From: Diphasiastrum complanatum
Lineage: Eukaryota; Streptophyta; Lycopodiopsida; Lycopodiales; Lycopodiaceae
Direction: 5' to 3'
Assembly (NCBI GenBank): GCA_029204225.1
Contig: CM055107.1
Span: 7,890,472-7,954,471 of the forward strand
DNA: 64,000 nt
Shown: piece by piece, positions 1-61,640 of the stretch
How the letters are laid out: each line of letters begins with the position of its first letter
Numbering within the stretch: the stretch's first letter is position 1
Position numbers and translations under genes: made by a program
Notes under the pieces: model-generated
Told to the model about the DNA's origin: nothing
Databases searched by the model: none
The model's input: the letters and a program-made list of their open reading frames with translations, nothing else

Positions 1-9
1 AGCCTCTAT

Positions 10-391
10 ACTTTTATGGAATCATATGCAAGATGTGAACATTTCATCATATTCTATGCAAAGAGTAGATCAATTTTGTTTTTTACCTCATCTCCATCAG
101 AGTTCAAATAAGAAAGTTATGACATATCAAAGATTGTTATCATACATTTGATCATGTGGCATATCTCCACCACACGCCAATCTGCAATTGTTAAAGAGAA
201 GAAGTCTACTGGCACGTCATGGTGATATGCCAAGTCATCAAATGCCACATCATCAATGTATGATAACGATATTTGACATGTCATAACTTTCTTATTTGAA
301 CTCGGATGAAGATGAGGTAAAAAGCAAAAATGATCTACTCTTCACATAGAATCCAATGGAATGATCAAATCTTGCATATGATTTTATAAAA
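10..391. repeat. Foldback (long inverted-repeat) element
   Basis: The two halves are reverse complements of one another over about 165-185 bases, separated by a short loop near 185-215. Shared arm landmarks include AATCATATGCAAGAT at the outer ends, AGAGTAGATC, and TTCAAATAAGAAAGTTATGACAT followed by TTATCATACAT further in; the inner part pairs GTGGCATATC with its complement. Arms differ by scattered substitutions and a ~15-base indel. This is the structure of a foldback or MITE-like element, or of a hairpin small-RNA precursor. The left end may extend out of the window, so the true length is not certain. Confidence 0.75.
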
Positions 392-1049
392 AAGAATTGA
401 AAATTTCTAGAAAAGTTATTGTTGTTCTACTCATCGTTAGATTAATGGATGATTTTATTGTAGATGATGTTTTGCAACTTCTTGCAAATTTGCCCTCCTT
501 AAATCATGTAAGTTTGTTTAAATATGGTTTGCTCGATATATTACTATTAACCATAACTACTAAGAGTTGGGTAGTTAGGAGTTTACGGGCAGCATGTATT
601 ATCAAATCACAAGACCTGCCCACATCGAGAGTTTCAAAATTTACACAAATATTACCGAAAAACTCCAAACATTTTCAGACCGACAAACTATGTTACATAA
701 CTTCACAAGTATAAAAAATTTATTGGGCCACATGTACACTAAACGGTTGAACAGTCAACAAAAGCACCTTGACAAATGGCCCTTTTGGTGGACTACCTCT
801 AATGTCTCATGCATAACATAAGTAGTTAAATTCACACATAGATGGATGGATTACTACATAATATGGTAGATATGTCTGATATCTAGACTGAAATCATCAT
901 TTCATGTAAAAAACTGAAATAAATGATAGCCTAGAAAATTGTCTTGTATTTTGGTTTATATGACAGCTTTTCAAAACTCATCATTTATGCCAAACATGAT
1001 GTTTTCTTAGGTTTATGTAGATAAGTGGGTCTAGGGCGGATTTTTCGTC

Positions 1050-1215
1050 GAGGGATTGGTCTTGTTGGAAGATCCCCAGTGGGAGAAGGGCCCACACTGT
1101 CCTTACACGTGAGTGATCAGGGTAACGCCGCATCCAATCCCGAGGGCCATCCCAATTACCCTGTTCTCCCTAGCCAATAAGAGTTTTCCAGGCTCTCAGA
1201 GATATGGCCACCGTG
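1050..1215. repeat. Dispersed repeat, copy 1 (second copy near 44.2 kb)
   Basis: This stretch and 44,155-44,330 share an ordered series of words in the same orientation: GGGATTGGTC, CGTGAGTGA, GCATCCAATCC, ATTACCC, AGCCAAT, GAGAGT/AAGAGT and CAGGCTCTCAGA. The similarity is diverged but collinear over ~150 bases. It is probably a fragment of an LTR or other interspersed element. No coding potential is seen; the bases around it (830-2,000) show only short AT-rich sequence. Confidence 0.55.
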
Positions 1216-1789
1216 AGATGAGATGGCTACAAACGTTTTAGCTAGATTCGAGCTTTGGTTTTGAATTTGGTATGATTATAAATACAAGCTTCTTAGATTT
1301 TGGTCTTTGGTCACTAGGGACAGTCCTGCTTTGATAATCTGGCTTTTGTTATCATCAGTGTGGCCTTTTCTTTGTAGTCGACATTTTTCTTTCCTTCAAG
1401 CAGTGGCTCAAGTGTCCACGTTTCATTCTGCCTCATCGACTCGATCTCCTCCGACATTGCTTGCTTCTAAAATTCACCTTATGGACTCTGGATAGGTTCT
1501 TGATATGTCGCCGGCTCCTCAGCGTAGCCATTAGAAGAGGTCTCATTATCAAAAAGACCCTTTAAGAAATGCCATGTAGGATAAAGAAAAAAATCAAAAT
1601 AAAAAAATAATAATATTGTTTATTTGCTTGCCCCCAACACTCCTGAGGATCTCCAACTCCCAATGATCTAACTATAGTGTCTATTGTCACAGTTAAGAAC
1701 TCTAAACTGTTCATAGTCTAACTTGTCTAAATTCAAAAATATTTTCCCTCCATTGGTTACGAAGAGGGCAATCTTCTCACTGGATCTAG

Positions 1790-1950
1790 AATATGGCCGC
1801 CATCCCCAAATTCAAATTAGGAAAAAAAGTAAAATGTATAAATATGCATTCCCTCCAGTAGAATAAAAATTTGAGTGCCTTCTCCAAATATGAATGCCAT
1901 CTCCACATTGGAATGAAAATTTGAGCGCCATCTCCAAATTTGAATCAGAC
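1790..1950. repeat. Short degenerate repeats with GCCATCTCCAAATTTGAAT
   Basis: Variants of a ~35-base phrase, AATTTGAGYGCCATCTCCAAA, recur three to four times in direct orientation. Looks like a small decayed tandem array. No gene is visible from 840 to 2,600 apart from meaningless short open frames. Confidence 0.4.
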
Positions 1951-2127
1951 AGAAAAGCAAAATCAATGGATTGATGGTACAGAGTATATAATATAATAAA
2001 AGATAAGTACTTTGTTTTGTTTTAAAAAATTTGTTCTTAGTACTTTGATGCGTTTAATTACTTTCTTGTTTTTTCTGATGACAACATTGTATTATCTACA
2101 TTTGGATATCCCTACTGATTTGGCACC

Positions 2128-2218
2128 TTTACAGAGAAGGGGAGGCAAAGGAATTCCAATCTTTGCTGAGGATCGAATAGGGAAGAGGAGGCAAAGGAAT
2201 TCAAATATCTGCTAAAGA
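2128..2218. repeat. Two-copy tandem duplication (~46 bp)
   Basis: The phrase GGGAGGCAAAGGAATTC followed by CAAT/AAAT and TTGCTGAGGATCG / TCTGCTAAAGATC occurs twice back to back. A minor local duplication within anonymous sequence just upstream of the decayed gene family member. Confidence 0.5.
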
Positions 2219-2838
2219 TCATTCTCGTTATAGGGTAGAAGGAAAGAACAACTTGGATTTGTGGACAAATGGAACATTATATTCTCAAGATCCCAGCACT
2301 CTGACTCATCCCACATTCTCGTCAATAACTAATCTAGTTATATGGATATGCAATGGGCATACTGGATTACTAGGATACTGTGAGAGATTGAAGAATCATG
2401 GAAATTAGTTCTATATGATGAAAATTCACATTTTAGAATGTAAGTTGATACGGATATCCTCTTATTGTCAGAATAGAGATTGTCTTCTCCAAAAGACCTT
2501 AGAGGAAAACGAACAACTTAAAAGAAATAATGAATAATTACACCAATATAACAATCGATATCAAATACAAACTAAAGCAAATGCAATCAATCTTACAATC
2601 TATTCGAATTGAAAAGTTACAATTACTGAAGGATGTGGAATTCTAAGAAGAAGGCTAGGAATAAGAAGCGAAAGCAACAAAGTTGCAAGGATATTTAAAC
2701 TCTTTCAAAAAGGATGTTATCGAAATAGAAGGATTCATGCATTCAAGTAAGCATGTTCTGATTTTTGTAACTTTATCAATGACATATGGATTTATTTCAG
2801 CTACGGTGATATTTTGCCAACTATCTGTTTTTTTGCAG

Positions 2839-4431
2839 ATCTGCATTAGTAGCTCCTCGGAATATTAAGGACAATGCTTCACTTGGAATATCGTTGGGCT
2901 CAATATTGACAGGCAAATCCACTGAGTGTATCATTATGAACAATAGGAGTTCCAATGTAAAATGCAAATTAACAGAGTCTTTGATGGTGGACAATCAAAA
3001 AAATTTAGATAAGACTATAGTTCAAGGTGCTTCTGATTTTGTAGGTATTAGCAGGGAAGCATATGCAACAATATTTAAACTTATTAGAGAAGCTTTTAAG
3101 TAAGTTCAAATTAGAAAAGTACTAATCCCAAGGTCATATCACTTGAAGAAAGAGAAGGATACATTAAACATAGGTATGCATAAGATTATCGGTAACCCAT
3201 TTCATATTGAGGAGGTGTATGAAACTGATGGAAGTTCAATATCTTGTAGTTCATCAAACAACTTATTTGTTGATATAAATTACTTGCTAAGATACATCGT
3301 CACATTCTATGATATAACCTTTGAAAAGGTGAATGGCAAAATAATCATGGTACTTAAGCTAAATGAGTTAGAAATTGTAAAAGGGTAGAAGATGGAGAGT
3401 GTTAGTATAGCTCTCATGAATGGTGCACTATCACAAACAGTGGAACAAGGAGATTTCAGATTTAGTGTCCAGTCCGAGAATGATATATGGTGGTTGGCAG
3501 CGTTTCAAATAATTTTTCTCTTTATTACATTATTTTCAATGGATAATATAAATTCATATTAAGCTAAGTTTGAATTATTGTTTGGATAGGTATTGAAGGA
3601 GGATCATGATATATTATCATGGATATTCTCTAGGACATCTTACCCTAGGATCATCAAGGACCATATGGATGGAGGATTTCTCAATGTTCCACAAGTTGGA
3701 GACTTCAATGTTGAATGGCACTTAGCAAGTTATTTGAAAACATTGAAATGCATGTATAATGTCTCTCACGATGCTACATCCAAACACCCTTGTTTATACT
3801 ACATGAAAATGGCAAAAGATGTTACTAGGAGTACATGAATTACTAGAGAATATGCAGATCCAAACTGGAAGCATGTGCTGCCCATTCCCTTGAAAATTGT
3901 GCATGTTTGCACTCTTCATGTAGAAGTTAGATTAATAGAAAAGCTCATTTATCTTCATATAGTTTTTGCTTGAAATACTAAGCCAACATCATCCTCGAAG
4001 GAAGCTATCTCGAGATTAGAAGATGTTTTATCGAAAGCAAGACTTCATAAGGGACGTGTCAAAATACAGAAAGATGAAAAGCTTTCAGAAAAGACAAGAA
4101 ATATGCTTACTAAACCAAGCATAGGAGGAGCAAAAGCACGTCAATTCCTATCAAAACATACTGGTAAGGCTTCAAAATTTAACACTCAGTCTGGATGGAT
4201 ATCATTGCTGCCACTCAAGGTTTCGAGAAGAGCGGCAAAACTAGATTACTAAAAGTTGATGTATGGAGAAAGCTTGATAGTATGATTGAAATTTTAAGAA
4301 AAGATAAATTTTCTGATATTGACAAGAAAGCTGTACAAAATACTTGTGTCGAGTTTGTTGGTACAGTATCAAAAGCATGGGGAGAAGATCACATCACTCA
4401 TTACATGGTTAGTATAAATGCTTCGAGATGA
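2839..4431 (+). pseudogene. Decayed multi-exon gene of an uncharacterised family
   Basis: A chain of open blocks on the plus strand reads as one damaged protein. Block 1 (2839-3103) follows a good acceptor TTTTTTTGCAG and has ISREAYATIFKLIREAFK. Block 2 (3143-3388) has LLRYIVTFYDITFEKVNGK. Block 3 (3593-3838), after a TTTGGATAG acceptor, has DFNVEWHLASYLKTLKC and CLYY. The same reading continues past the stop at 3836 with WKHVLPIPLKIVHVCTLH and VRLIEKLIYLHI, then a final block (4195-4431) with CVEFVGTVSKAWGEDHITHYM. Several stops and at least one lost frame show it is broken. The pattern of an acidic DLKTL.CMYN..CLYC segment followed by PIPL.RVHVCTLH.....EKL.HLH reminds me of large uncharacterised proteins of seedless plants, algae and some animals, possibly transposase-derived, but I cannot name a function. 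Confidence is good that it was coding and low on identity. Confidence 0.5.
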
Positions 4432-4969
4432 TTTTAATACTCCTTATATATTTTGATCCAAGCATAAGACTGACATTATGATTTTGACATGTGCAACACA
4501 TAATAAGAGATCATACAACATTTTTTGCAAACACATGGAAGCCTGAGTGTCTAGTCATCACAAGGGATGGAGAAGTCACATTGGCAAGCACGGGCAGCAT
4601 TTCATCAACATGGAGGAACCAATGAAAAATGAAACTACATTTATCAATTATTTCAATGGTTCTACCGTAGAGTTCAGATTTGACAAATAACAAAATCCAT
4701 AGAATATATCAAGTTTAGAAAAGCATGCAAGTTCACGCATGAAGAGAAAAATTAGAATATTGCTGAATAACAGATTACATTCTTCTTGAAACTGTGCCTT
4801 TTCTACAAATGATTTTAATATAACAAAGACATTCAGTAATCATTGTCATCAAATTATGACAAGTTCAGAAAAGCAAGAGAGAAGAGCATCATAATCAAAT
4901 GATATGTACTCAATGTAAATGTATTAATTGTATCATAACATAAAACAAAGTGTTCACTCTTCATCATCA

Positions 4970-5585
4970 ATTTTTGTATCTCCTTCTATGCCGATGAAAG
5001 AATCCCGAACCACTTCAGTATCAAGGGTGTCAATAAGGAAGTGACTAATATCTTTAAAGGATGATGGAACTGAGGATGAGGCCATTTGAGGATCAGAAGC
5101 GATAGCTTTTTCATCATCCGAGATCTAAACTAGCAGGAAAAGTATAAAACCAGTCTAGTATTTAAGAAAACGACATTTTCTTTTACAGATAGGACACATC
5201 ATAGTGTATCTAAATTGTTCAAACAATCTAGTAAACATTCTGTCTAGTCTTTGCTTGAACATCGGGAAGAAATGAACAAGACCAGTAAAATGCATGAATG
5301 AGAGAGGACCTATGGAGATAACATGTATACTAGCTATATCCCTGAATCTAACATAGTATTTGTAAATACTGCAGAACTAGGTTGCACAGTCTTGCAAACA
5401 TGTAGATATGGGCGAAATAGTGTGTGAAAGTAGTCTAAGTTTTTAGTCATTCCAAGATCAGTAAGAAATACACTTAGGGTGCTCTCACGGCTAGATCCCG
5501 AGGACAACACCATGGCTCTCAGGTAGATATCGCTTCTGTGCGTGGGGTAAGCAAACAGGAAAAAAGAGATTGTAAGAACGCACAC
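4970..5585 (-). CDS. Possible minus-strand coding unit, unknown
   Basis: Weak candidate. On the minus strand an open frame runs 5585-5334, with a plausible internal start near 5513 (MVLSSGSSREST). A second open stretch follows in another frame (about 5330-5157) with QRLDRMFTRLFEQF and CPICKRKC. A third open stretch (about 5128-4970) encodes an acidic, serine-rich tail ending IEGDTKIDDEE and a stop. If these are exons, two introns are needed; the junctions are not convincing. No domain is recognised. Its interest is position: it would point away from the H3-like gene with the CACGTG array between them. It may equally be noncoding. Confidence 0.2.
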
Positions 5586-5744
5586 AGGAGTGATATGTAC
5601 GAAAACTGTAGTTGGGATATCGCATTAGTGTGTAGACAAAAGACTAGCAACAATAGATACTATAAATAGTGCGCAGAAAAGCAATTTGCCATGAAAATTG
5701 AGAAAAAAAAGTAAAAAATTAATCGGGTTGCATGTCTTTTATAG

Positions 5745-5944
5745 GCAATTTTCACACGTGTGGGTCAATGGTCAACCAAACACATGTTGCCTCCTAATGG
5801 TTCGTACAACTACACACGTGTGATCTGACTACTGGACACGTGTCACGAGTTCATCAAAAAATGTGACACGTGTCGCCTCCCTAATGGTCCATACGACTAC
5901 ACACGTGTGATATGACTACAGGGCATGTGTCACGAGGTCATTGG
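5745..5944. promoter_or_regulatory. CACGTG-rich ~88-bp tandem array, left part
   Basis: Direct repeats of ~87-89 bases each carry ACACACGTGTGAT.TGACTAC and GGACACGTGTCACGAG or close variants (starts at 5812 and 5899). CACGTG is the plant G-box core bound by bHLH and bZIP factors; at least five perfect CACGTG cores lie here (5757, 5815, 5837, 5864, 5902 approximately). The array is interrupted at 5944 by the Copia element and resumes at 10301. In the pre-insertion sequence the next unit start would be 89 bases after the one at 5899, so the period is kept. Regulatory function is inference. Confidence 0.6.
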
Positions 5945-6554
5945 TGTCAGAAATCGAGAGGTTAGTGAGCAGAATCTTGAGCAGGTTCGTATAGGATCGG
6001 AAACGCCACAAACAACAATAGAGTATTCAAATTGAATGATTTAGACAAATGCACAATGAAATGATACTGTAGTAGGACTAAAAATTTGCACTCTGATTAA
6101 TATCAAACAGTGAGTACATGCTTGAAGTGATAACTTTAGCTTACAGTCATTGAGAGTGATAACTTTGGTTGTAGAAACTCGAATAATCAGAAGAAGTAAT
6201 CTGATGAGATTCTAGGATTGATATCCTACAAAATATCTACAACTACCTTTTGTTGCAGTTATTACAATTGCCTCATTATAGTTAATGCATGTACAAAGTG
6301 GACAGACTATCAACGCGAAGTCGTTGGGTCGGCGACAGTATCAAAATTTACAAGTATCAAAAAATGTACAAAGATTTGAAAATACTGACTCGAAAAATAT
6401 AGAATTTTTCGAGTCGATCCGATATAAAAAATTCCTAGAAAAGATTTGATTCTGAATTTTTCAATCCTCTGTTCATAATTCGAGCTTTCTGTTTTTGGTT
6501 TTTCATGATGCTCATTATTGAATGGATTTGAGACTGAGCATCGAAATCCAACAC
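5945..6554 (-). repeat. Copia LTR (3' LTR of the minus-strand element)
   Basis: Same length as the right LTR (610 bases). Starts TGTCAGAAATCGAGAGG, ends GAAATCCAACA. Differences from the partner LTR are scattered substitutions, so the insertion is old rather than recent. Confidence 0.88.
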
Positions 6555-6599
6555 TCTTCCTTAATTTGGATCTTGAAAACTTTTGATTTTTAGATTCAA

Positions 6600-6767
6600 C
6601 ATGTCGTTGAATCTGAGGTGGTGCTCCTTTGATAGAGCCTTTGTGAAGTAATCTCCTGCCATTGATTCTGTCCTACAGTAGACTAAGGATATATCTTTGC
6701 TTTGTACTTTCTCTCTCAAATAGTGATATCTGATTTTGATATGCTTGCTTCGAGAATGAAATCTTGG

Positions 6768-6865
<98 letters not shown>

Positions 6866-8026
6866 ATGGTGCTTAAGTTGTCACAAAAGATGGTTGTTGG
6901 ATGTGATTGTGCAAGGTTGATTTCTGCTAGTAGGTGCCTCAACCAAATTGTTTCCTTTGTAACATTTGTGTCAGCAATGTACTCTAATTCAGTTGATGAT
7001 AATGCTACTGAGGTCTGCTTTCGGCTGTTCTAGGAGATCGGTTCTTGATTGTATAGGAATACCAATTCATAAGTAGACCTTCTAGAATCGATATCTCTTG
7101 CCCAATCTGCATCTGTGTATCCTTCAAGTACGTTGGTAGGTTGGTTGTCTCCATAACGTATGCTAAGATGTTTGGTTGCCTGAATGTACTTCATGACCTT
7201 TGTGAGCACTTTCCAATGAGTTAGACCTGGATTCGATAGAAACTGGCTGAGTGAACTGATTGAATATGCAATGTCACGGGTCGAGTGCAGATCATTGCAT
7301 ACATTAGTGAGCCGATGATGGAGTGAAATAGATATTGTTTCATCTCCTCCTAATCTGCCTCAATTTGAGGATATTGTTCCTTTGACAACTTCAATCCAAA
7401 GTCAAGTGAAAAGAGACTTGGTTTGTAGTTGGCCATTCCATACTTTTTCAGCACATTTGTGAGATATCGCTGTTGGTTGATGAAAATCGGACGACTAGAT
7501 CAAATTCAGAAAATTTTGATTCCGAGACAGTAGTGGGCTTTTGGACCCATATCAGTCATTTTGTACTCCTTGGCCAGCATGCATTTCGTTTCCTTCATCA
7601 GATCCAGATCGTTACTAAATAATAGTGTATCATCTACATAGAGAGTGACGATGATGAAGAAATTTGATACAGAGTTGAAGTAGACATTCGAGTGTGCTGA
7701 GTTTGGAATGAAACCATTCTAATAAGGAATGCATTTATTTTTTGGAACTAGGCCCTAAGTGACTATTTCAGTCCATAGAGTGCCTTGTAAATTTTGCACA
7801 CAAGGTGTTGTTTTCCTCTCAACTCATATTCTTCTGGTTGTGACATAAATATTTCTTCTTCAATGGTCCCATTGAGCAAAGCGATCTGGACATCCATTTG
7901 ATGGACTTCGAGATCTACTGCAGCTGCAAAGGAGAGTAGCAAATAGAACAAAGCATGCTTGAGTATTGGGTTGAAGGTTTCAGAATAATCCAGATCTAGA
8001 ATCTGGGAATAGCCTTTGGCTGCCAA
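6600..8026 (-). pseudogene. Copia reverse transcriptase / RNase H remnant
   Basis: The segment 7763-8026 (minus) encodes RT: AAKGYSQILDLDYSETFNP, then LEVHQMDVQIALLNG and ALYGLK, all Copia RT landmarks. Downstream in other frames are FIIVTLYVDDTLLF (about 7612-7655), which contains the catalytic YVDD, and the RNase H part near 6,870-6,900 (CDNLSTIA). At least one frameshift follows ALYGLK and stops are present throughout. RNase H is disrupted by the GA tract. Acts, when intact, in copying element RNA to DNA in virus-like particles; this copy cannot. Confidence 0.82.
6771..6863. repeat. (GA)46 microsatellite inside Copia RNase H
   Basis: An uninterrupted 93-base GA run. On the minus strand it reads as Leu-Ser repeats immediately after the RNase H signature CDNLSTIA and before SKISFSKQAYQNQIS, which still resembles the normal downstream HSRSKHIKIRYH block. 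The dinucleotide tract therefore expanded within the coding sequence of the domain. Confidence 0.9.
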
Positions 8027-8340
8027 AGCATATTAGATGATTCAGAAGTTGAGGTATGACGAGCTTGACTGTTGGAAGAATAACAATGGCTGAGTTTGTA
8101 GAGATCTCTACTTCTTCTCCCAAAAGCTAGAATTTTCCAAGTTTTGTTAAGGATAGTGCAACCGATTGTATCGAATTTAACCCTTCGATCTGAATCAATG
8201 ATTCTGCTAACTGAGAGTAGATTCTTGGTCAGATTTGAGATGTGGAGAACATTGGGAAAGAAATGAGTAGGAATTTTACCCTTAAAACACATATTTGATA
8301 CAAGATTCAAATTTCTTAGTTCTTTCAACATGCCAATCAA
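7996..8340 (-). pseudogene. Copia pre-integrase (GAG_pre-integrs) remnant fused to RT
   Basis: The minus-strand frame contains VLHISNLTKNLLSVSRI, the conserved phrase between protease and integrase in Copia polyproteins, and continues to GRRSRDLYKLSH. It then meets sequence overlapping the RT start (WQPKAIPRF against the RT frame AAKGYSQI). The whole zinc-binding and catalytic integrase is absent, so the deletion joins these two parts near 8030-8060. Confidence 0.75.
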
Positions 8341-8499
8341 ATCTCAAAAAAGCTCTGCCCTGCGGCCTTATGATCTTTCCAGATTCAATTAAGAATTTGA
8401 GAGTGGCAAAAAGTAGTTATTAGTTTCTTGTTGACAATAACCTTGACTTCACCTTTCTGAAATTTGACTCTGACTATTTCTTTACCTTGAATTGAATGT

Positions 8500-9553
8500 G
8501 ATGAGTTGTCTCCAAGTTGCACAACTCGAGTGGGTGAAAGATTTATAATCTTTGAACCAGACTTGATGGTGAGTCATGTGTTGAGTTGCTCCAGAATCGA
8601 GATACCAGGAATCGATATCCTATTGTTTTCCGACCTTGGTCATAAAGGCTGCTTCATCTTCCTCATGTTGTTGTATCAAAAAACTAGTTGAGGCTGAATT
8701 TGCTTGTTGTTGGAAGTGCTTCTTCTTCTCATTCTTGAATTTTAAAGTTCTGTAGTCCTTGATCTCAAGTCCAATTCTCTTGCAATATCTGCAGAAAAGC
8801 TTCTGCTTTGGTTGGAAAGATGAAGAGTTCGAATTCGATCCTGAGTCTAAATTCAACCCAGAGCTAAAATTTGAGACTTAGTCAAAATTTGATCATGACT
8901 GCATATTGCTCTCTTTTTTTTGGATCTAAACTTCTGATTTTTGGAATACAGAGCATGAGGATCCGACTGTGTACCTAAGGAGGTTGCAGATCTTCTGGCC
9001 TCCTCTTGTTGAAGTAATAAAATCACTCTTGAAAGGGTGATCTTCTCTTGGATCAAAATTTCTAGGACCCAGTTCTCATAGGCCTCATGAAGACTCGATA
9101 ATAGAGTTATAACAACATCAGTATCTTCAATGACTGAGCCAGTTGCAGTCATTTGCTCCATAAAATTTTGGAAAGTGTTGATGTGGATCGAAACATTTGT
9201 TGCTTCAGACATTCTCAAGGTGAAGAATTTTTTCCTCAAATGCAGTTTGGAGGAGATGTCCTTGATATCATAGAGTGTTGCTAGGATGTCCCATGCATGC
9301 TTAGTAGTCTTAACAACTCGTATGTGACTGATTTGATTGTCTTTGATGTTGAGGTGATCATGACAAAAGCCTTGTCATCTTTCAGTCTCCATTTGGTGAT
9401 AGTGGCTACATGACCTCCAAGTTTAACTTATGTGCCATCAACAATGTCCCACAGTTCCTTGGCTAGTAGTATGACCTTCATTTTGAATTTTCAAAGATGG
9501 TAGTTTCTTCTATCGAGTCTATCAATTAGAGAAGAATTAAAAGACGAATCCAT
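8500..9553 (-). pseudogene. Copia gag and protease remnant
   Basis: On the minus strand from about 9553, MDSSFNSSLIDRLDRRNYHL begins a typical Copia gag, with stops soon after. The open part 8853-9239 has SEATNVSIHINTFQNFM and LLSSLHEAYENWV, the usual UBN2-type gag pattern. The zinc knuckle near 8,780 (CRYCKRIGLEIKDY) has lost its His and last Cys. The protease signature WYLDSGATQHMTHH is readable near 8,570-8,625. Non-functional overall. Confidence 0.8.
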
Positions 9554-9678
9554 TCTGGTTGAGCAAGATCATCGGTAGAAACAATTCGAGATACTGTTGG
9601 CTATGCGCTTGCTAGGACGCGTCTTGATATAAACAAGACTTGATAATCCGCAGTAAAATACAAATTACTGCACTGTCC

Positions 9679-9690
9679 GCTCTGATACCA
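9679..9690 (-). other. Copia primer-binding site
   Basis: Plus strand reads GCTCTGATACCA, i.e. TGGTATCAGAGC on the minus strand, complementary to the 3' end of initiator tRNA-Met, directly adjoining the right LTR at 9691. Confidence 0.85.
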
Positions 9691-10300
9691 TGTCGAAAAT
9701 CAAGAGGTTAGTCAGCGGAAGCTCGAATAGGTTCATGTAGGATCGGAAACACCACAATAAATAGTAGAATATTCAAATTGAATGATTCGGACAAATGCAC
9801 AATGAAGCTATATAGTAGTAGGACCAAAAATTTGCACTCTGATTAATATCAAATAGTGAGTACAATGCTTGAAGCGATAACTGCAGCTTACAATCACTGA
9901 GAGTGATAACTCTGGCTGCAAAAACTCAAATAATCAAAAGAAGTTTCTAATGAAGATTCTAGGATTGACATCCTACAAAATATCTACAACTACCTTTTGT
10001 TGCAGGTATTACAACCGCCTCATTATAGTAAATGCTTGTACAAAGTGGGCGGATTGTCAATGCAAAGTCGTTGGGTCGGATTTTAGATCATCGACAATAT
10101 CAAAATTTACAAGTATCAAAAAATGCACAAAGACTCAAAAAATACTGACTCAAAAAATATAAACTTTTTGAATCGATCTGATATAGAAGAATTCTCAAAA
10201 AAATTTGATCCTAAATTTTTCGATCCTCTACTCAATGAGCCCTAGTTTTTCAAGATGCCCATTAAGAAATGGATTTGAGACTGAGCATCAAATTCCAACA
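9691..10300 (-). repeat. Copia LTR (5' LTR of the minus-strand element)
   Basis: 610 bases, TGTCGAAAATC to AATTCCAACA, collinear with 5945-6554 and followed by the ATTGG duplication. Confidence 0.9.
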
Positions 10301-10480
10301 ATTGGTAGGAAACATGCCATGTGACATCTCCCTATTGCACCATACGATAGCACATGTGTGACCTGACATCCGAACACATGTCACGCAATCATTGCATGGA
10401 TAAGGCGACACATGGCAGAATCTCATAAACTGATAGTTTGCACGTGCGACAAGACGTGTGTTCGCACGTGCGAACCGTTT
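10301..10480. promoter_or_regulatory. CACGTG-rich array, right part, upstream of the H3-like gene
   Basis: Continues the array cut by the Copia insertion, with more diverged units (CACATGTGTGACCTGACA, ACACATGTCACG). It ends with a perfect 14-base palindrome TTCGCACGTGCGAA and a second GCACGTGC close by (10,440-10,480). The H3-like start codon is about 320 bases further on. Presence of G-box-like palindromes just upstream of a gene suggests a promoter or enhancer, but this is inference. Confidence 0.5.
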
Positions 10481-10797
10481 GATAAAAGTCCTCGACCCCG
10501 AGACACTTTTCTTCAATTTTTTTTTGCTCCATCTTTCCGCATATTGCTCTTGTGCGACGGTAGGTTATGTGCACTTCTATCTATTATAATTCATATGCAC
10601 AAATTTGATATACTGTACCTCCGCATATCGCTATGGTAGGACCCTCTTCTATTTGTGTTTTACTTGTTATACTCGTTGCGCATAGAAGCGATATAACTTA
10701 CTGTCCATACATATTGCTTCTCTACAACCATCATTACACCCTTTTTCATCATATTTCATTTCTCATGCACAAGTCCAATAGCCCTCTGACTACCAAT

Positions 10798-11972
10798 ATG
10801 GATAGGAGAAAGCAGACAAAGAGAGATTTTTTCTCTACTGATACTTCCTCAGAGCCTATTGTTGCCATTAATCCACCCAGACAAACTAGAAGGCGCAACT
10901 GTAGTAAGTGGCTATATGATATTCGCAAATACCAGAAATCCACCAAACTCCTAATTTCCAAAGCACCATTTTACCATGTTATCCGCCAGATTACCAAGGA
11001 AGATCTCGGTAGTATAGTTAGGTTTACACCCGGGGCACTTCAGTGCCTTCAAAAGGCTGCTAAGGATTATCATAGCCTCTTTTCTGAGGACTCATTTTTG
11101 CTCGTCATACATGCCAAGCGAGTTATGATAATGCCTAAAGATTTTCAGCTACTATACAAGATGAGGGATAGATACTCAAAATTACATATGGGTGAGCCAG
11201 CTGCTCCCAGACCCGCCGATCCATTAGATAGGACATACCTCCCTACCAAGAGGCCCATGAAGCAGCCAACCCCCAAGAGAACCCCGAAGAAAGTAAGGAG
11301 GGTCGTTAATCCAGAGTCTCCTTTTGTAGATAATATAGATACTGCTACATTTGATTTGGTTGTAAACATAGCTACAACCATTTTGGATAATTCAGTTATT
11401 TTTGTAGATTCTTCTCATCCACCTCCTCCTCTTCCTTCTCATCCACCTCCTCCTCATGCAATTTTTTATACATATATAGATTTTGATGATTATCTTAAAT
11501 TTGAGAGTGACATGTATGATGTTGTAGATAGAATTGGAGTTCCATTTTGTTTTAGATTAGAGGAACTTGATTTCAGTATAAATTATAGGATTATTGATTG
11601 TTTGGATCTAGAAAATAAATGGGCTTTTATCAGTGATGCTGTGATAGAGTCTGGGGACACACTCTTGCAATTTGACATTGCAAGAGATTCATCGAGTGAA
11701 ATTTTGGTGCTCAACAATTCTTTCCTTCAGGCAATTAAGGAGAAGAATGACAATTTGTCACAATGTCTATTTAGTGGATATACACCAGTTACAAAATATC
11801 TGTTTAGTGGATGCACAGCAGTTACAAAATATCTGCTGGTGTCTTATCACTGCAAGTAAGTCAATTTAAATGTTTTTTGTTATTTATAGCTTTATTATTG
11901 GCATTATCATTTGAGGTATTTCTCAGAATTGTAGCTAATGGACTCTCTATTTTATTTTGCAGTGAGCACTAG
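10798..11972 (+). CDS. Divergent histone H3-like protein with long C-terminal extension
   Basis: From ATG 10798 the protein opens MDRRKQTKRD, matching the H3 tail start (M.R.KQT.R, with K4 kept). The histone fold follows: IRKYQKSTKLLI (alphaN, identical core), PFYHVIRQI (alpha1), VRFTPGALQCLQKAAKDY (alpha2) and IHAKRVMIMPKDFQL (loop 2 and alpha3). Residues equivalent to H3 H113, R116 and D123, used in the H3-H3 four-helix bundle, are kept; C110 is Leu. Loop 1 is one residue longer than in H3 and lacks K79. The tail is ~10 residues shorter and lacks the ARKS motifs at K9 and K27. After alpha3 come ~220 unfamiliar residues: a basic Pro-rich linker (KRPMKQPTPKRTPKKVRR), HPPPPLPSHPPPP, then an acidic, aromatic region. 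A donor at 11856 and acceptor TTTTATTTTGCAG at 11962 would give a last exon 11963-11972; unspliced it stops at 11859. The frame is open upstream to 10633, but M56 (10798) fits the H3 N terminus. Centromeric H3, a transposon-captured H3 or a specialised variant are all possible. Confidence 0.75.
11776..11841 (+). repeat. 33-bp in-frame duplication in the H3-like gene
   Basis: Two consecutive 33-base units give the related peptides FSGYTPVTKYL and FSGCTAVTKYL near the C terminus. The duplication keeps the reading frame. Confidence 0.75.
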
Positions 11973-12339
11973 AGTTTAAACTTGATCTCTATCAGGAGAT
12001 CTATAGAGAATGTTATTAAACTTTTTTGTGTAAATATTGACTCGGTCCTACCGATTGTATGTAAATATATTCCATCAGAGACTCCCATGCAATTGAATGA
12101 GAGATCATTAGTCTGGAGGTAAATTATGTCCTTCTCATCAACATTTTGAAATCAACAATCTATTGTGTTCTTATCATTGTGTGGTTTTCCATTATTGATG
12201 TCTTGTGTGCTGAAATTTTTGTAGTCACCCTAGCAAAATGATTCATTCAGTTGTGGGTGGTACACTTTGTACAATGCAAAGTTGCTTTTTGAGCAAGATG
12301 TTGATATTTCAAAGGTAATTTATTTTGTTTATTATTGGT

Positions 12340-12831
12340 TTTGGAATTGTGATTCATTTTTCTATTCGAAATGCTTCTTTTGTAGAAAGAAGGGGCATTA
12401 TGCGTCTGAATGCTACAAGAGAATAAGAGCACAAGTGGAGAAGGACAAACAAGGAAACCTTGCAAAGGAGGAGGAGGAGGATGAAGTAGATGTATTCTTG
12501 ATGGCATCTACATCCTCACCAACAAGCAATAGCAATTCAAGAGACAATTGGTGGATCGACAATGGGGCTAGCTCCCACATGTCTTGTGAAAGGACTTTTT
12601 CTCAACTTTACACTCATTCAATGATGCTAAAAAGTTTGTCTTTACTGCAAATGATGAAGAGTGTAGGATAGATGGTGTTGGCACCATCTCTTTGTGTCTA
12701 GAATCCTCAAAATGCATGGATCTAGAAAATGTCCTTTATGTACCATCAATAACCAAGAATATGCTTAGTGTTGGTCTACTCTTAGAAAGTGGTTTGGATG
12801 TCCACTTTAAGCATGGGGTTTGCTTCATCGG
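12340..12831 (+). pseudogene. Copia gag end / protease fragment, 5' half of a split element
   Basis: Plus-strand frame with a complete zinc knuckle CFFCRKKGHYASEC, an acidic stretch, then a protease signature WWIDNGASSHM (usual D-S/T-G; here D-N-G). A frameshift near 12,660 leads to VLYVPSITKNMLSVG, the standard phrase before the pre-integrase region. Homology stops sharply at about 12,831. The expected continuation reappears about 3.9 kb away at 16,735, so the element was split and partly deleted. Confidence 0.8.
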
Positions 12832-12990
12832 ATTCTGATGTGCACTTTAAAAATTGTTTGCCGCCAGAATTTTTCGATCACCGGACTTCTAGTTTCGAAT
12901 TTTTTGCCTATCAGATTCCGATGCGTTGAATTGTGACGGATTATAAAATTTCCAAAAATCTGTCGGACGTCCACGTCGGAATCTGCATGA
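12825..12990. repeat. Segment with TCGGATTCCGAC / GGACGTCC palindromic motifs
   Basis: Contains CATCGGATTCTGATG, ATCAGATTCCGATG, GTCGGACGTCCACGTCGGAATC. The same vocabulary occurs at 21,313-21,480. It may be LTR edge sequence of an unnamed family. No coding sequence. Confidence 0.4.
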
Positions 12991-17010: not shown

Positions 17011-17899
17011 ATCCATAAGTAAGTAGCCTTGCTGAGATGAAAATACTTTTTGATTTCAATATTAGAAAAATCCTGCCAAGTTGTGGTGATTTTTAGACTT
17101 ATGTTTCTAGCATAAGTAATATTGATAATCATAGAAAGTGCACATTGTATGATCATGTTTGTAGTGATCATCATGAGACATGGAGGTCTCAGATTTCCAT
17201 CAAGGAGGAGCATGCACATCAAGAAAGCGAATGCCTCAAGGTCAAGCATCTACATGAAATTTGGAAGGAGTCAATCATCATCATGCTTTTATCAAGTTAG
17301 TTTTGAGGAGTGTTAAAATTGGCAAAAGCACTATGACTGTGACATATATATCTAGCACAAATAGGATAAGTTATCGATGAGATATAGCTCGTCTTTGTAG
17401 GATATCAATAGGACCATCATCCTAAGTGTCAAACAAAGTGATGGACAAAAGAGTGCACATTGGAGAGAGTGGAATGCTGCATAAGTCCAAGATCTTCTCG
17501 GAAATAGTACCCTTGAAATCCAAGATCACATTAGAGGAGTTTTGAGTTCCAAAAAGACCCTTTAAGAATTCGTGCAAGATGTAGTTTATATTATTAAAAT
17601 ATTATAGCACTAATACTTTTGACTTGCCATAACTTTTTAATTGTAGCTCAGAAGTATATCATCTAACATATCATTGGAAAGCTCTTGTTGAGCGCTTTCC
17701 AATGCACTAGACTCTGCTAAATTTGGACTTGCCACAAAAACGTTATGCCATTTTTAGTGTGGAATCAAAATGTGGACTCAAAAAGTTACGTTATGTAGAT
17801 TTCAAATTTGAGTGTTTTGATTGGTCCATGTGTAAGAAAAAATTGAGAAAAATTAAAAAAAGAATCCTTACAAAGTTTGGATTTAGAACTCCTCTAATG
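17011..17899. other. No recognisable gene
   Basis: AT-rich sequence with short open frames only. Some of it may be decayed integrase, but no motif is readable. Confidence 0.5.
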
Positions 17900-26939: not shown

Positions 26940-27494
26940 ATGTGGAACATCATTTTCATATTTGGGTCATATGTACGTGATCAAGCCAGTGAGCACTTTC
27001 CTAACGCGAGATTGGATTTATTTTCTTTGACTAGCATTGATGTCCCTTTGAATATTGTTGTCACATTAATGCCTTATGTAGGACCTCGATATAATTGGGG
27101 TGATTGGCATGCTCTATGTCATCACCAATGGAGAATGCAGGTTTACATCTTGAATGCCAATGCTTGTTCTTTGGAAAAGTGTCGTGTGCAAGGAGAGAAT
27201 GTTTTGAAATCACATCGTATGTACATTGATGGGCGTCCAGAAAAACATGGCAATATTGTTGCATATATAAATAATTCCATTGGTCACCCTTCATTAACTA
27301 ATTGTGATTTTGAGGAATGTGCCAATGGAAAGGAAGAATACTTTTCTAGAAACTCAAAAGGTACATACGTAATGGTATGTGCGATAAGGCCCATTAAATG
27401 TGGTGAAGAGCTATTCATCAAATATAGCTTCAATCCTCCTCTTCCAAGATGTGTACAAAAGGCTTTGAGCCAAACTCAAGCATGTACCTTGTAA
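26940..27494 (+). CDS. SET-like domain fragment within the CACTA unit
   Basis: Open for 184 codons. The C-terminal half fits the SET-I to SET-C order of lysine methyltransferases: YIDGRPEKHGNIVAYINNS in place of the (R/A)-FINHSC motif, TNCDFEE for the PNC part, an aromatic/basic stretch, TYVMVCAIRPIKCGEELFIKYSF for the (hydrophobic)-A-x-R-x-I-xx-GEEL-x-x-Y motif. The Cys of NHSC is absent, so methyltransferase activity is doubtful. It lies in the same strand between N-terminal and central transposase blocks, so it may be a normal part of this CACTA family's long protein or a captured host exon. The start codon is only nominal, since readable sequence continues upstream in another frame. Confidence 0.5.
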   Translation: MWNIIFIFGSYVRDQASEHFPNARLDLFSLTSIDVPLNIVVTLMPYVGPRYNWGDWHALCHHQWRMQVYILNANACSLEKCRVQGENVLKSHRMYIDGRPEKHGNIVAYINNSIGHPSLTNCDFEECANGKEEYFSRNSKGTYVMVCAIRPIKCGEELFIKYSFNPPLPRCVQKALSQTQACTL

Positions 27495-58796: not shown

Positions 58797-60581
58797 ATGG
58801 ACTTGTCAATGAAGGAAATATATCAACTTTTAAAAATATCTCTACTCTTGATATTAACCGCCTGTACTGCAGGTATGTTGAATGTAGATCATGTACCGTT
58901 GATTTCATCTATTGTTGTAGATGTACTTGTTGATTTTATCTATTGTTGTAGATGTACTTAGGTATGTTGAATGTAGATCATGTACTGTTGATTTTAACAA
59001 TTGTTGTAGATGTACTTGTTGATTTATCTATTGTTGTAGATGTACTTGTTGATTTTATTAGAAGTTATATGTTGATGTGTCAACTAGCCTTGTGACATTG
59101 ATCAACTTGAACTGTCAACTACTTTGTTTGACCATTATGTACTTCCACTTTCAGAAATGGTGCATGGTGAGCAACTATTGCCATTGTTTGCTTTTGGAGA
59201 CTCGCATTTGGATACTGGAAATGCTAATAGTTCCATAATTTCACGAAAATTCCCATACGGTGTTTCATGGCCTGGTTTTCCAACTGGACGCTTCTCAGAC
59301 GGTTACACCCTCACTGATTTGATTGGTATGCCTTCTCTCTTTAATCTTCTAGTTATGGCAATTCTCAATCTTTGAGACATTGTATGTTCTCACATAGATG
59401 TTATTTCTCCACAGTTAAGAGAATATTCTCTTCTGCTATTTCACACAAATACTTGGATAATTCTCGCAAGAATGCCATTAAAGGAGTAAACTTTGCTATT
59501 GGTGGCAATGGAGTGTTGAGCAATTCGGAGACGAGTTTCAGTATGCAAGTCGACCAACTCCAAAGCATTATACCACTCTACAAAGTTGCCCAAGCAAAGA
59601 TTCTAGTAATTGTGTCTTTTGGAGCAGATAATTATATAAACCACCTTCAAAACAATGGCTCAATATCGGTACAAATTTCTATGTTCACGCTTTCCATTTT
59701 CCATATAGATACTCAACAGTTACATTTACACGTAAATGCAAGCATTTGAATCCACCTTTATTTCATTGATTCTCTAGCAAAGAGGAGTTGATTGTTGATT
59801 ATATATGTATCAGGGATTGTCAGCTTTGGTCGTTGAAGTAGTTGATGAGATCATCAGTAACTTGCAACGACTTTACAAGATGGGACTGAGAAGATTTGTG
59901 GTATCGAATCTCGGGCGCCTCGATTGCTTACCTATTGAGACAGCTTCTCTATCCTATAGCCAGTGCAGAACAGAAATACAACCTCTAATAGCATTTCACA
60001 ACCACTTATTGGTGCAACATATTAACACAATGCTGGAGAATCTATCAGATGCAGAATTTGTCATCTTAGATCAAAACAAGGCATTCTCTTTTGTCATGGA
60101 CAACGCGAGTCTACTGGGTAATTTGAGACCTCCATCAACACCTTCATATCTACCTACCTTGATAATGTGTTAGCAAAATTTAGTCAATCCATACCATGCA
60201 ATTTCTTTATATGCAAGTGTGATATACAGTATTGTGAAAAATGCTAGGCAAAATATCATTCTAGCTTAATACTTGTATGGGGAGAACTTTTCATGTATAA
60301 AATGCTTCTAACACATTCTGATCCATAGGCTTCACATATGCTCTTGTGTAGGTATCAAGGAGGTTTTCAAGCCTTGTTGTATGGCAAAGATAGGGCAAGC
60401 TAAGTGTGGAGAGATAGGTAAGCAAGGAGAGCCTCTATACAATCTTTGTTCCAATCCACAAAACTATCTATTTTGGGATGACAAACATCTCACTCAAGCT
60501 GGATGGCAAGCGATCACCTCTGTTTACTACAACTCCACCTTGACAACTTTGCCGAGCTGGATGTTGACAAAATCACATTGA
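58797..60581 (+). CDS. GDSL esterase/lipase, five exons, secreted
   Basis: Exons 58797-58872, 59155-59325, 59415-59668, 59814-60117 and 60352-60581 join in frame through GT-AG introns to 344 residues (the family is usually 350-370). Residues 1-25 form a signal peptide with core LLKISLLLILTACTA. Block I LFAFGDSHLDTGNAN holds the nucleophile Ser42. Block II GVNFAIGGNG (106-115) carries the oxyanion Gly. Block III is FGADNY (151-156); the usual family form is G-x-N-D-Y, so Asn and Asp are swapped. Block V FWDDKHLT holds Asp311 and His314. GLRRFVVSNLGRLDCLP is the typical mid-protein motif. The family hydrolyses ester bonds of lipids, cutin precursors or acylated sugars in the apoplast; the substrate is unknown. 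The spacing from block I to block II is about 10-15 residues short. No stop or frameshift breaks the model, so it is probably a real gene. Confidence 0.85.
58892..59057 (+). repeat. ~31-bp tandem repeats in GDSL intron 1
   Basis: Five to six units of TTGATTTTATCTATTGTTGTAGATGTACTT (read in parts: TTGATTTTATC, TATTGTTGTAGATGTACTT), interspersed with two copies of GGTATGTTGAATGTAGATCATG, one of which contains the real donor. Confidence 0.85.
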
Positions 60582-61640
60582 TATATTTCTATATCAACTT
60601 GTCTAGTGTGCAACTTAATCTCTTATATTCATGGGTGACCAGTGGAGATTAAATAACAAGTGATTTGAGCTTATTTCCTAAATGTGTATTGTAGCACTTT
60701 CAAAAGTGCCTAATATGTATTATTTAAAGTTTAAAATCATTGGTAATTTAATGCTAAAATTAGTCTATTTTCATTTATTTTGTTGTGTTTAGAATAATGA
60801 TAATCCTCAAATCAACAGATTTTGTGTGCACATTGTTTTTTCAAATTTGAATCACCTTTACAATAGACTTAACATTCATAGTATTACTACTATGTTTGCA
60901 ATTAGCTTATACTTTTTGTATCATACGTTTAGTACTCGTATGTTATCCTCATTCTTGACCCATTAAACATTCTACTCAACCAAAGTTGTCATACACAAAG
61001 TCCATTGCTCTTGATAGTCCCATATTGTTAAGACAAGTTCAGAACATGTCTTCAACATTCAAAACATTCTACGAAATGTATGAATCTCAGATTAGTTTGT
61101 CATTTACAGTCAAGCTTTTTATCCTACTTACACTATGATTTATGATCCTATTTGTTACATACTTTTTTGAGATCACAACCTCATACATTAGTGTAGTTGT
61201 TGTTCTTGATACATAATAACTCACAATAATGATGATAAAGTCACCAATATAAAAAAGTGAACCTACTCATTATTATCTAATTTACGAATTCTATCATATC
61301 TCTTACCAAAAAAAAAAATTGCAAAAGTTTTTGAGTAAACAATTTGCAATTTATTAAATTTGCTTATTTAGACAAAATAGGTACTTGTACAATGAAGCTT
61401 GCAAATGAGATTTTAACTTTTAAATTTTAGATGAATTAACGAAAAATTGTAAATTCAATAGTAGATAAATGATAAAAGAAAGTGCATAGACATGGACTCA
61501 AGTATTTAATCTTTGGAGAATATATCTATTAAGACATAAAAGAGATACTGTAATGTATTTATTTTATTGTTTAATCGTTTATATTATGATTTTTACATTG
61601 TGTCATTATATACAATTTATTTTTTGATATAATTGCTTGT
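60582..61640. other. No recognisable gene
   Basis: AT-rich downstream flank of the GDSL gene. No clear polyadenylation signal was identified. Confidence 0.5.

What the first reader, a model, noticed from the sequence alone, without database searches (positions are those of the whole stretch)
10798..11972. Histone H3-like protein with a ~220-residue extra C-terminal region
The sequence keeps M.R.KQT.R of the H3 tail, the alphaN IRKYQKST core and the IHAKRV.IMPKD.QL signature, yet the rest of the fold is strongly diverged. It loses the ARKS motifs at K9 and K27 and K79, has one extra residue in loop 1, and does not stop after alpha3. A basic proline-rich linker, a PPPP block and an acidic aromatic region follow with no known counterpart. 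Canonical H3 ends about ten residues after alpha3, so a C-terminal fusion is unusual. Possibilities are an odd centromeric H3, a reproductive or stress H3 variant, or a captured H3 in a mobile element. The open frame of 350 or more codons with a likely spliced end argues against simple decay.
Basis: partly seen in the sequence, partly recalled or inferred. Interest (0 to 1): 0.9.

Follow-up and report, generated by a model that had tools for sequence, protein, structure and literature searches.

The report
Transposon-encoded histone H3–SUMO-protease fusion
The odd histone H3 gene is a decayed copy of a gene carried by an abundant plant DNA transposon; an intact relative encodes a histone H3 fused to a SUMO-protease-like enzyme, a combination I did not find described and that may help the transposon resist silencing.

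Summary
The H3-like ORF is real (353 aa, Pfam Histone 7.9e-21) but is not a host histone gene. It lies in a dispersed repeat with inverted ends CATTAGAGGAGTT...AACTCCTCTAATG: 36 of 39 non-self scored places share the right end (29 within 5 bases), and 17 of 40 share the left end within 4 bases. The repeat also carries a putative transposase and two unknown genes. All 115 places scored by protein search match across H3 and extension. The 'unknown' extension is the start of a four-exon gene: splice sites are conserved, exon 2 supplies NDHW, exon 3 SPQQNDSFSCGW. The one fully open copy seen (L050) matches Pfam Histone (1.5e-24) and Peptidase_C48/Ulp1 (7.9e-9). So the family encodes an H3–Ulp1-type protease fusion. 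Selection over the family is purifying, strongest on the H3 core (median dN/dS 0.20 among 25 copies not chosen for intactness). The window copy is dead: stops, deletions, no exon 4. Best guess at function: a chromatin-docked anti-silencing deSUMOylase; inference only. Known kin: H3-carrying hAT elements in fungi, Ulp1-carrying MULEs in plants; I found no description of a fusion.

The parts
1529..12371 (+). Remains of one copy of the H3-carrying transposon (left end present, right part lost), split by an LTR retrotransposon
   Evidence: Left edge: 17 of 40 scored places start at 1526-1529. Homology to other copies over 1526-3765, 3887-5945 and 10301-12371.
1529..1566 (+). Left terminal inverted repeat, CATTAGAAGAGGTCTC...AAAAAGACCCTTTAAG
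   Evidence: Matches the reverse complement of the right end of other copies...GGAACTCCTCTAATG; aligned with the MITE right end.
2000..4430 (+). Decayed exons of the element's putative transposase gene
   Evidence: ORF pieces at 2810-3100, 3104-3385, 3590-3835, 3974-4249, 4183-4428, related to L050:575-1498/1700-2272 and to P0005-P0016. No Pfam domain, so 'transposase' is inference.
4990..5729 (-). Decayed gene A of the element (unknown function, divergent to H3)
   Evidence: tblastn of L041 ORFs; no Pfam domain over its cut-off.
5945..10300 (-). LTR retrotransposon (copia by my reading of its ORFs, not tested by Pfam) inserted into the element; LTRs 5945-6553 and 9691-10300, 82% identical; target duplication ATTGG (5940-5944 / 10301-10305)
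   Evidence: minus-strand ORF pieces.
10798..11855 (+). Exon 1: H3-like tail and fold, basic linker, PPPP block, N-terminal part of the protease domain
10906..11178 (+). H3 histone-fold core (about residues 37-127)
   Evidence: PF00125, PDB H3 alignment, alignment.
11464..11855 (+). Start of the C48/Ulp1-like region (FYTYIDFDDYLKFE...YHC)
   Evidence: 69% identical over 113 aa to the same stretch of L050.
11856..11962 (+). Intron 1 (GTAAGT...TTGCAG)
   Evidence: Splice sites conserved in 5 of 5 aligned copies.
11963..12118 (+). Exon 2 remnant: catalytic-His region; TAG at 11970-11972 where L050, E48 and E44 have TGG, and a 31-nt deletion
12225..12314 (+). Exon 3 remnant: SP*QNDSFSCGWYTLYN (Gln/Cys motif kept, TAG before it, 15 nt lost)
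12372..12835 (+). Copia-like gag-pol fragment that cuts off exon 4 and the rest of the element
   Evidence: Homology to other copies stops at 12366-12372 (copies reaching that far); gag/protease-like reading is mine; matches to retrotransposon-like stretches of E42 and E43.
17529..17899 (.). 371-bp non-autonomous element (MITE) with the same inverted ends; flanked by TCA on both sides
   Evidence: the pattern with exact 13-bp ends occurs 1241 times in the genome, control 0.

Best explanation
What it is: a dead copy of one gene of a multi-gene, probably cut-and-paste DNA transposon that is repeated more than a hundred times (scored; thousands of first-look candidates) in a 1.74-Gb plant-like genome. 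The element has inverted ends, a putative transposase (+), gene A (-), the H3 gene (+) and gene B (-). The H3 gene has four exons and encodes about 490 aa: a short K4-like tail, a diverged H3 fold, a basic proline-rich linker and a C48/Ulp1-type protease domain. How it most likely works: the H3 half pairs with H4 and enters, or docks on, chromatin, best at the element itself. It lacks the K9 and K27 sites that mark silenced chromatin. The protease half removes SUMO (or a related modifier) from silencing factors nearby, so that the element can be transcribed and move. Shown by sequence: element, fusion, splice sites, catalytic motif, purifying selection over the family. Inferred: chromatin incorporation, SUMO as substrate, anti-silencing role. 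I give the identity about 0.9 and the mechanism about 0.35.
For: Repeat family: 115 of 115 scored places (9103 first-look candidates) match over most of the ORF, many over residues 1-336, on most large contigs; 28 of 115 have no stop. Shared ends; TIR; 1241 short derivatives with exact 13-bp ends, control 0. Fusion: L050 exons 5057-6066, 6174-6360, 6473-6577, 6678 on, open to 491 aa, Histone 1.5e-24 (87 bits) and Peptidase_C48 7.9e-9 (36.1 bits, cut-off 20.7); best PDB sequence match yeast Ulp1 1euv, E 0.0027, aligning HW and PQQ...CG. The protease part belongs to the family, not to one copy: exon-1 part in 30 of 30 loci L009-L038, exon 2 in 21 of 30, exon 3 in 19 of 30; Cys kept in 16 of 17 exon-3 matches that cover it (the set holds near-duplicates). 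Selection: among 25 copies not chosen for intactness, median dN/dS 0.20 (core) and 0.57 (extension in exon 1), against 0.72 and 0.78 for the whole ORF in the two wrong frames; among open ORFs the core gives 0.08-0.14 against the window in the 4 of 10 pairs where dS is not saturated. H113 and D123 of the H3-H3' contact, R83 and R116 are invariant in 11 rows, R69 is Arg in 7 of 11 (numbering recalled). C48-bearing VANDAL elements (KIU) lower methylation of their own kind in Arabidopsis (PMC13317346, passages).
Against: No transcript, protein or chromatin data. Only one copy with a fully open spliced gene was seen (L050); of four copies spliced the other three carry stops, and two of these have lost the Cys (E44 Tyr, E48 Phe). 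The acidic catalytic position of Ulp1 seems to be Asn in most copies. PF02902 matches only profile positions 82-203 of 217. Both structure models failed (pLDDT 31 and 34). In the youngest pair, window and L010, the core has 5 nonsynonymous and 0 synonymous changes, i.e. no constraint (the extension has 3 and 4). Extension dN/dS between L048 and L050 is 0.61, so constraint there is weak. 87 of 115 copies carry stops. The 'transposase' has no Pfam match. The target duplication rests on one good MITE.
Confidence: 0.6

Rival explanations
1. The H3-protease protein serves transposition itself, not anti-silencing: the H3 half tethers the transposition complex to nucleosomes (target choice or self-avoidance) and the protease matures or releases the transposase.
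For: It sits together with a putative transposase in one element; the H3 core is the most constrained of the parts measured.
Against: No sign of a polyprotein; insertion-site preference was not measured.
Confidence: 0.25
2. Passive hitch-hiking: the element captured an H3-protease gene by chance and it does nothing for the element; the selection seen is left over from a host gene.
For: Gene capture by plant elements is common (PMC13317346, abstract opening and passages); 87 of 115 scored copies carry stops; the core of window and L010 shows no constraint.
Against: Constraint is seen between element copies: core dN/dS 0.16 and 0.21 for L048/L050 and L044/L048. No host gene of this form was met, but no dedicated search was answered and host exons could be hidden among 6325 candidates.
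Confidence: 0.2
3. A centromeric H3 (CENH3) captured by the element, which drives it to, or interferes with, centromeres.
For: CENH3-like letters by my reading: RFTPxALQ, AAEDY, KDFQL, one extra loop-1 residue; weak, sub-cut-off CENP-T and CENP-S matches.
Against: The tree does not group the family with CENH3; it is a long branch of its own (100/97), with long-branch warnings and unsettled bootstrap. Loop 1 is only one residue longer. Copies are scattered over the contigs.
Confidence: 0.12
4. A single host H3 variant gene with a fusion, or an assembly artefact.
For: The ORF is open at the window place.
Against: More than a hundred dispersed copies with the same joint, and shared ends.
Confidence: 0.01

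Closest known systems
H3-carrying hAT transposons of fungi (Pseudocercospora fijiensis; Pyrenophora tritici-repentis 'H3L')
   Same: A DNA transposon with inverted ends carries an H3-like gene and has multiplied it to tens or hundreds of copies (PMC6710886, abstract and first part of Results; PMC3538342, passages).
   Different: There: hAT transposase; in P. fijiensis an 8-bp target duplication, mostly truncated H3 copies inactivated by RIP; in Pyrenophora H3L full-length and with ESTs; no protease domain on the H3 is mentioned in what I read. Here: a plant-like genome, other ends, an H3 fused to a C48 protease, constraint over the family.
Kaonashi/KIU Ulp1-carrying MULEs (VANDAL) of plants
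   Same: A plant DNA transposon carries a C48/Ulp1 domain; KIU-carrying VANDALs lower methylation of their own kind (PMC13317346, passages; PMC6117577, passages).
   Different: KIU lie in non-TIR MULEs and belong with VANC-type genes; no histone is mentioned in that review. Here the protease is fused to H3 and the element has short inverted ends.
P0051, a 391-aa protein of a public contig (source label lgn)
   Same: H3 fold followed by Peptidase_C48 (1.9e-38 and 4e-15).
   Different: Closer to canonical H3 (131.9 against 87 bits); C48 parts only about 25% identical; its genomic setting is unknown, so it may be an independent fusion.
CACTA (EnSpm) transposons
   Same: Ends CATTA differ from CACTA by one base (CACTA ends recalled); a 3-bp target duplication is suggested by one MITE.
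   Different: No Transposase_21/TNP2 match; ends do not read CACTA.

Membership tests
Histone H3 | Histone fold over the family cut-off and closest to H3 | tested here: met
   Window 75 bits, L050 88 bits, cut-off 26.4; PDB H3 4e-18.
Histone H3 | Tail with K4, K9, K27 contexts and end after alpha3 | tested here: not met
   K4-like MDRRKQT kept; K9/K27 contexts absent; in L050 the protein goes on for about 365 residues after the fold.
CENH3 | Groups with CENH3 in a tree | tested here: inconclusive
Peptidase C48 / Ulp1 | PF02902 over its cut-off | tested here: met
   36.1 bits against 20.7, in the one spliced copy scanned.
Peptidase C48 / Ulp1 | Catalytic His, Gln and Cys | tested here: met
   NDHW, PQQND, SCGW in L050; Cys in 16 of 17 covered exon-3 matches of the 30-locus set; lost in E44 and E48.
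Peptidase C48 / Ulp1 | Catalytic Asp after the His strand | tested here: inconclusive
   Mostly Asn (KMNS) in the copies listed; Asn could serve, and the alignment there is uncertain.
Peptidase C48 / Ulp1 | Cleaves SUMO | not testable with these tools
   Needs an enzyme assay.
TIR DNA transposon | Fixed ends that are inverted repeats | tested here: met
TIR DNA transposon | Target-site duplication | tested here: inconclusive
   TCA on both sides of one MITE with exact ends, TGC in one weaker pair, none in two weaker pairs; chance 1 in 64 each; more flanks could not be fetched.
CACTA | TNP2/Transposase_21 domain | tested here: not met
   No match in the ORFs scanned.
hAT or MULE (as in the fungal H3 and KIU elements) | hAT or MULE transposase domain | tested here: not met
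   No match in the element ORFs scanned; the transposase of these copies is incomplete.

The most novel reading that the evidence does not exclude
A transposon that encodes its own enzymatic histone: an H3 variant without K9/K27, fused to a deSUMOylase, which is built into nucleosomes on the element and strips silencing marks there. It would be selfish DNA that edits its own chromatin from inside the nucleosome.
Probability: 0.3. Interest if true: 0.95.

Novelty: new variant of a known kind. Interest (0 to 1): 0.85.

Why it matters
Transposons are known to capture histones (fungi) and Ulp1 proteases (plants), but a selected fusion of the two offers a direct, testable model of how selfish DNA fights chromatin silencing: dock as a histone, cut SUMO. 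It also gives a natural histone-enzyme fusion whose H3 half has diverged under constraint, useful for asking which H3 features are needed for deposition. The abundance in one genome (1241 short derivatives with exact ends; 9103 first-look candidates for the protein) suggests that the element was very successful.

Tried and rejected
Host H3 gene, single-copy variant, assembly artefact: rejected by the repeat evidence. Viral origin: no relative of the H3-extension, of P0016 or of P0051 was confirmed in IMG/VR contigs by these pattern scans. CENH3: not supported (23 redundant rows were left out before the tree). Structure prediction of the exon-1 protein (11 rows) and of the putative transposase (4 rows) gave pLDDT 31 and 34 and was not used. 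My first guess that the repeat began at 10301 was wrong; 10301 is the edge of the LTR-retrotransposon insertion. The idea that segments left of 2954 in E41 belong to the element was dropped: by my reading they are gypsy-like. Papers: ten searches, listings and openings of abstracts seen; none of the listed titles or abstract openings describes an H3-Ulp1 fusion or an H3-carrying plant transposon; only openly licensed PMC papers are searched.

Full report
The observation. The ORF at 10798-11859 encodes 353 aa. It matches Pfam Histone at 7.9e-21 and solved H3 chains at 4e-18. The genome, unnamed, has 1.74 Gb and canonical H3 genes as well (13 matches of 163.7-165 bits; five translated to 136 aa).

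It is a repeat. The DNA of 10798-11972 gives 47 match rows when 40 of 1819 first-look candidates are scored, 73-99% identical apart from itself, many over the full length. The protein gives 115 of 115 scored places (9103 candidates), 63-73% identical apart from the window and one segmental copy, mostly over residues 1-336; 28 of 115 have no stop, 87 have. Many ORFs cluster at about 331 and 340 codons. These counts are lower bounds, and some pairs are probably duplicate contigs.

The ends. With a query from L041, 36 of 39 non-self scored places end at query 1224-1239, 29 of them at 1224-1228; the other three begin at 1226 and run outward. With window 1-2600, 17 of 40 scored places start at 1526-1529; two start at 1536 and 1541, two are the window and its segmental copy, and 19 belong to another repeat at 3-808. 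The left end reads CATTAGAAGAGGTCTC, the right end of L041 GGAACTCCTCTAATG. A 371-bp element with the same ends lies in the window at 17529-17899, flanked by TCA on both sides. The exact pattern CATTAGAGGAGTT-N330-360-AACTCCTCTAATG occurs 1241 times in the genome, control 0. I take the element as a DNA transposon with inverted ends and abundant short derivatives. Of the other pairs of ends found in held sequence, all with more mismatches, window 59476-60608 has TGC on both sides, and pairs in L044 and L029 show no duplication.

Anatomy. In the H3 sense the element holds a putative transposase gene (+), gene A (-), the H3 gene (+) and gene B (-). The putative transposase is related to 12 database proteins out of 687 candidates, the best 97% identical to L050. 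They share KLDE......G.K.ERVS.T..N, and the four longer-reaching ones HL..D.K..K.M.G...GAN....CIYC. No Pfam domain matches over its cut-off. In the window this gene and gene A are decayed. An LTR retrotransposon (5945-10300, LTRs 82% identical, target duplication ATTGG) splits the copy, and a retrotransposon fragment cuts it off after 12371.

The extension. Downstream of the ORF, five of five aligned copies keep a GT donor and an AG acceptor. A second and a third intron follow. In L050 the four exons stay open for 491 aa. That protein matches Histone (1.5e-24) and Peptidase_C48 (7.9e-9, 36.1 bits, cut-off 20.7). Against PDB sequences the best matches are yeast Ulp1 (E 0.0027) and another Ulp1-like protease (0.005), which align the HW and the Q...CG motifs. 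The protease region of exon 1 is found in 30 of 30 loci L009-L038, exon 2 in 21, exon 3 in 19; this set contains the window place, its segmental copy and several near-duplicates. Of 17 exon-3 matches that cover the Cys, 16 keep it. E44 and E48 have lost it and carry stops. Exon 2 often has TAG for the TGG of HW, as in the window. The acidic partner of the His seems to be Asn in most copies. So the unknown extension is a C48/Ulp1-type domain, perhaps an active protease in intact copies; activity is not shown.

The window copy. Exon 1 is open, but exon 2 has TAG at 11970-11972 and lacks 31 nt, exon 3 has TAG and lacks 15 nt, and exon 4 is missing. The segmental copy L010 shows the same damage in exons 2 and 3; between the two, the H3 core differs by 5 nonsynonymous and no synonymous changes, the extension by 3 and 4.

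Selection in the family. Among 12 open ORFs, chosen for being open, the window against the 10 others (L010 apart) has core dN about 0.2 with dS of 1.6-2.6 in four pairs and saturated in six; extension dN/dS is 0.27-0.33. Medians over usable pairs are 0.20 (core), 0.35 (extension) and 0.46 (tail). Among 25 copies not chosen for intactness the medians are 0.20 (core, 299 pairs) and 0.57 (extension, 298 pairs), against 0.72 and 0.78 for the whole ORF in the wrong frames. For that set, 6 of the 30 loci were dropped beforehand: the window's own place, which is represented by the window ORF, and near-duplicates L013, L016, L026, L031, L035; L010 was kept. Exons 2 and 3 show lower dN/dS and few stops in the expected frames in rough sliding windows. 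Pairs are not independent, and old and new branches are mixed, so this shows past constraint in the family, not the state of any one copy.

Relatives elsewhere. A profile of 11 rows finds 70 proteins among 4079 candidates, all listed with a histone domain; the largest coverage is 40% of the query, so none covers the extension. P0051 is another H3-C48 protein, but its H3 is nearer to canonical and its C48 only about 25% identical. A second H3-carrying repeat type exists in the same genome (L045-L047): H3 at the end of a 306-391-aa ORF, with a gene related to gene B at 31% identity. IMG/VR scans confirmed no relatives. In the tree the element H3s form one group (100/97) on a very long branch, not joined to CENH3; most of the tree is unresolved.

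Known systems. Fungal hAT elements carry H3: 784 H3-like copies in P. fijiensis, mostly truncated, RIP-inactivated (PMC6710886, abstract and first part of Results), and H3L in Pyrenophora (PMC3538342, passages). Plant KIU elements carry Ulp1, and KIU-carrying Vandals direct hypomethylation of their kin (PMC13317346, passages; PMC6117577, passages; VANC work PMC5735166, passages). The present element shares one half with each and was not found to be a member of either by transposase domain or ends.

Mechanism. The H3 core keeps H113 and D123 of the H3-H3' contact and R83 and R116 in 11 of 11 rows, R69 in 7 of 11 (numbering recalled), so it could pair with H4 and sit in a nucleosome. The tail keeps a K4-like start, MDRRKQT, but no K9 or K27 context. 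A C48 enzyme brought to chromatin in this way could take SUMO off silencing complexes. This fits the KIU precedent, but every functional step is inference.

Noticed in passing
L045, L046, L047 (C5:63204301, C4157:6801, C17:36121001): A second repeat type with an H3-like domain at the C-terminus of a long ORF with polyproline runs, next to a gene related to gene B of the window's element.
   Followed up: partly
window 17529-17899: MITE with the ends of the H3 element; 1241 exact-ended matches of 356-386 bp in the genome.
   Followed up: yes
window 26940-27494 (+): ORF of 184 aa with a SET-domain match (4.9e-8): possibly a fragment of a SET-domain methyltransferase gene in a retrotransposon-rich window.
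   Followed up: no
P0051 (391 aa, source label lgn): Near-canonical H3 fused to a C48 protease in another public contig: either an independent fusion or a wider class.
   Followed up: partly
window 1-2600 and 9300-12829, and C16:8673695 onward (L010): About 98% identical segmental copy 0.78 Mb away on the same contig, carrying the same damage in the H3 gene.
   Followed up: partly
window 12-808: Another abundant repeat whose first 380 bases also match its own copies in reverse, i.e. with an internal inverted repeat.
   Followed up: no
window 5793-5854, 5880-5941, 10331-10392: Three copies (87% and 69% identical to the first) of a 62-nt repeat upstream of the H3 gene, possibly promoter or protein-binding repeats of the element, as VANC target repeats are.
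   Followed up: no
L048 (C23:10789001) and L049 (C24:1835601): 99.8% identical over about 10 kb; C24 may hold sequence duplicated from C23, or an alternative haplotype.
   Followed up: no
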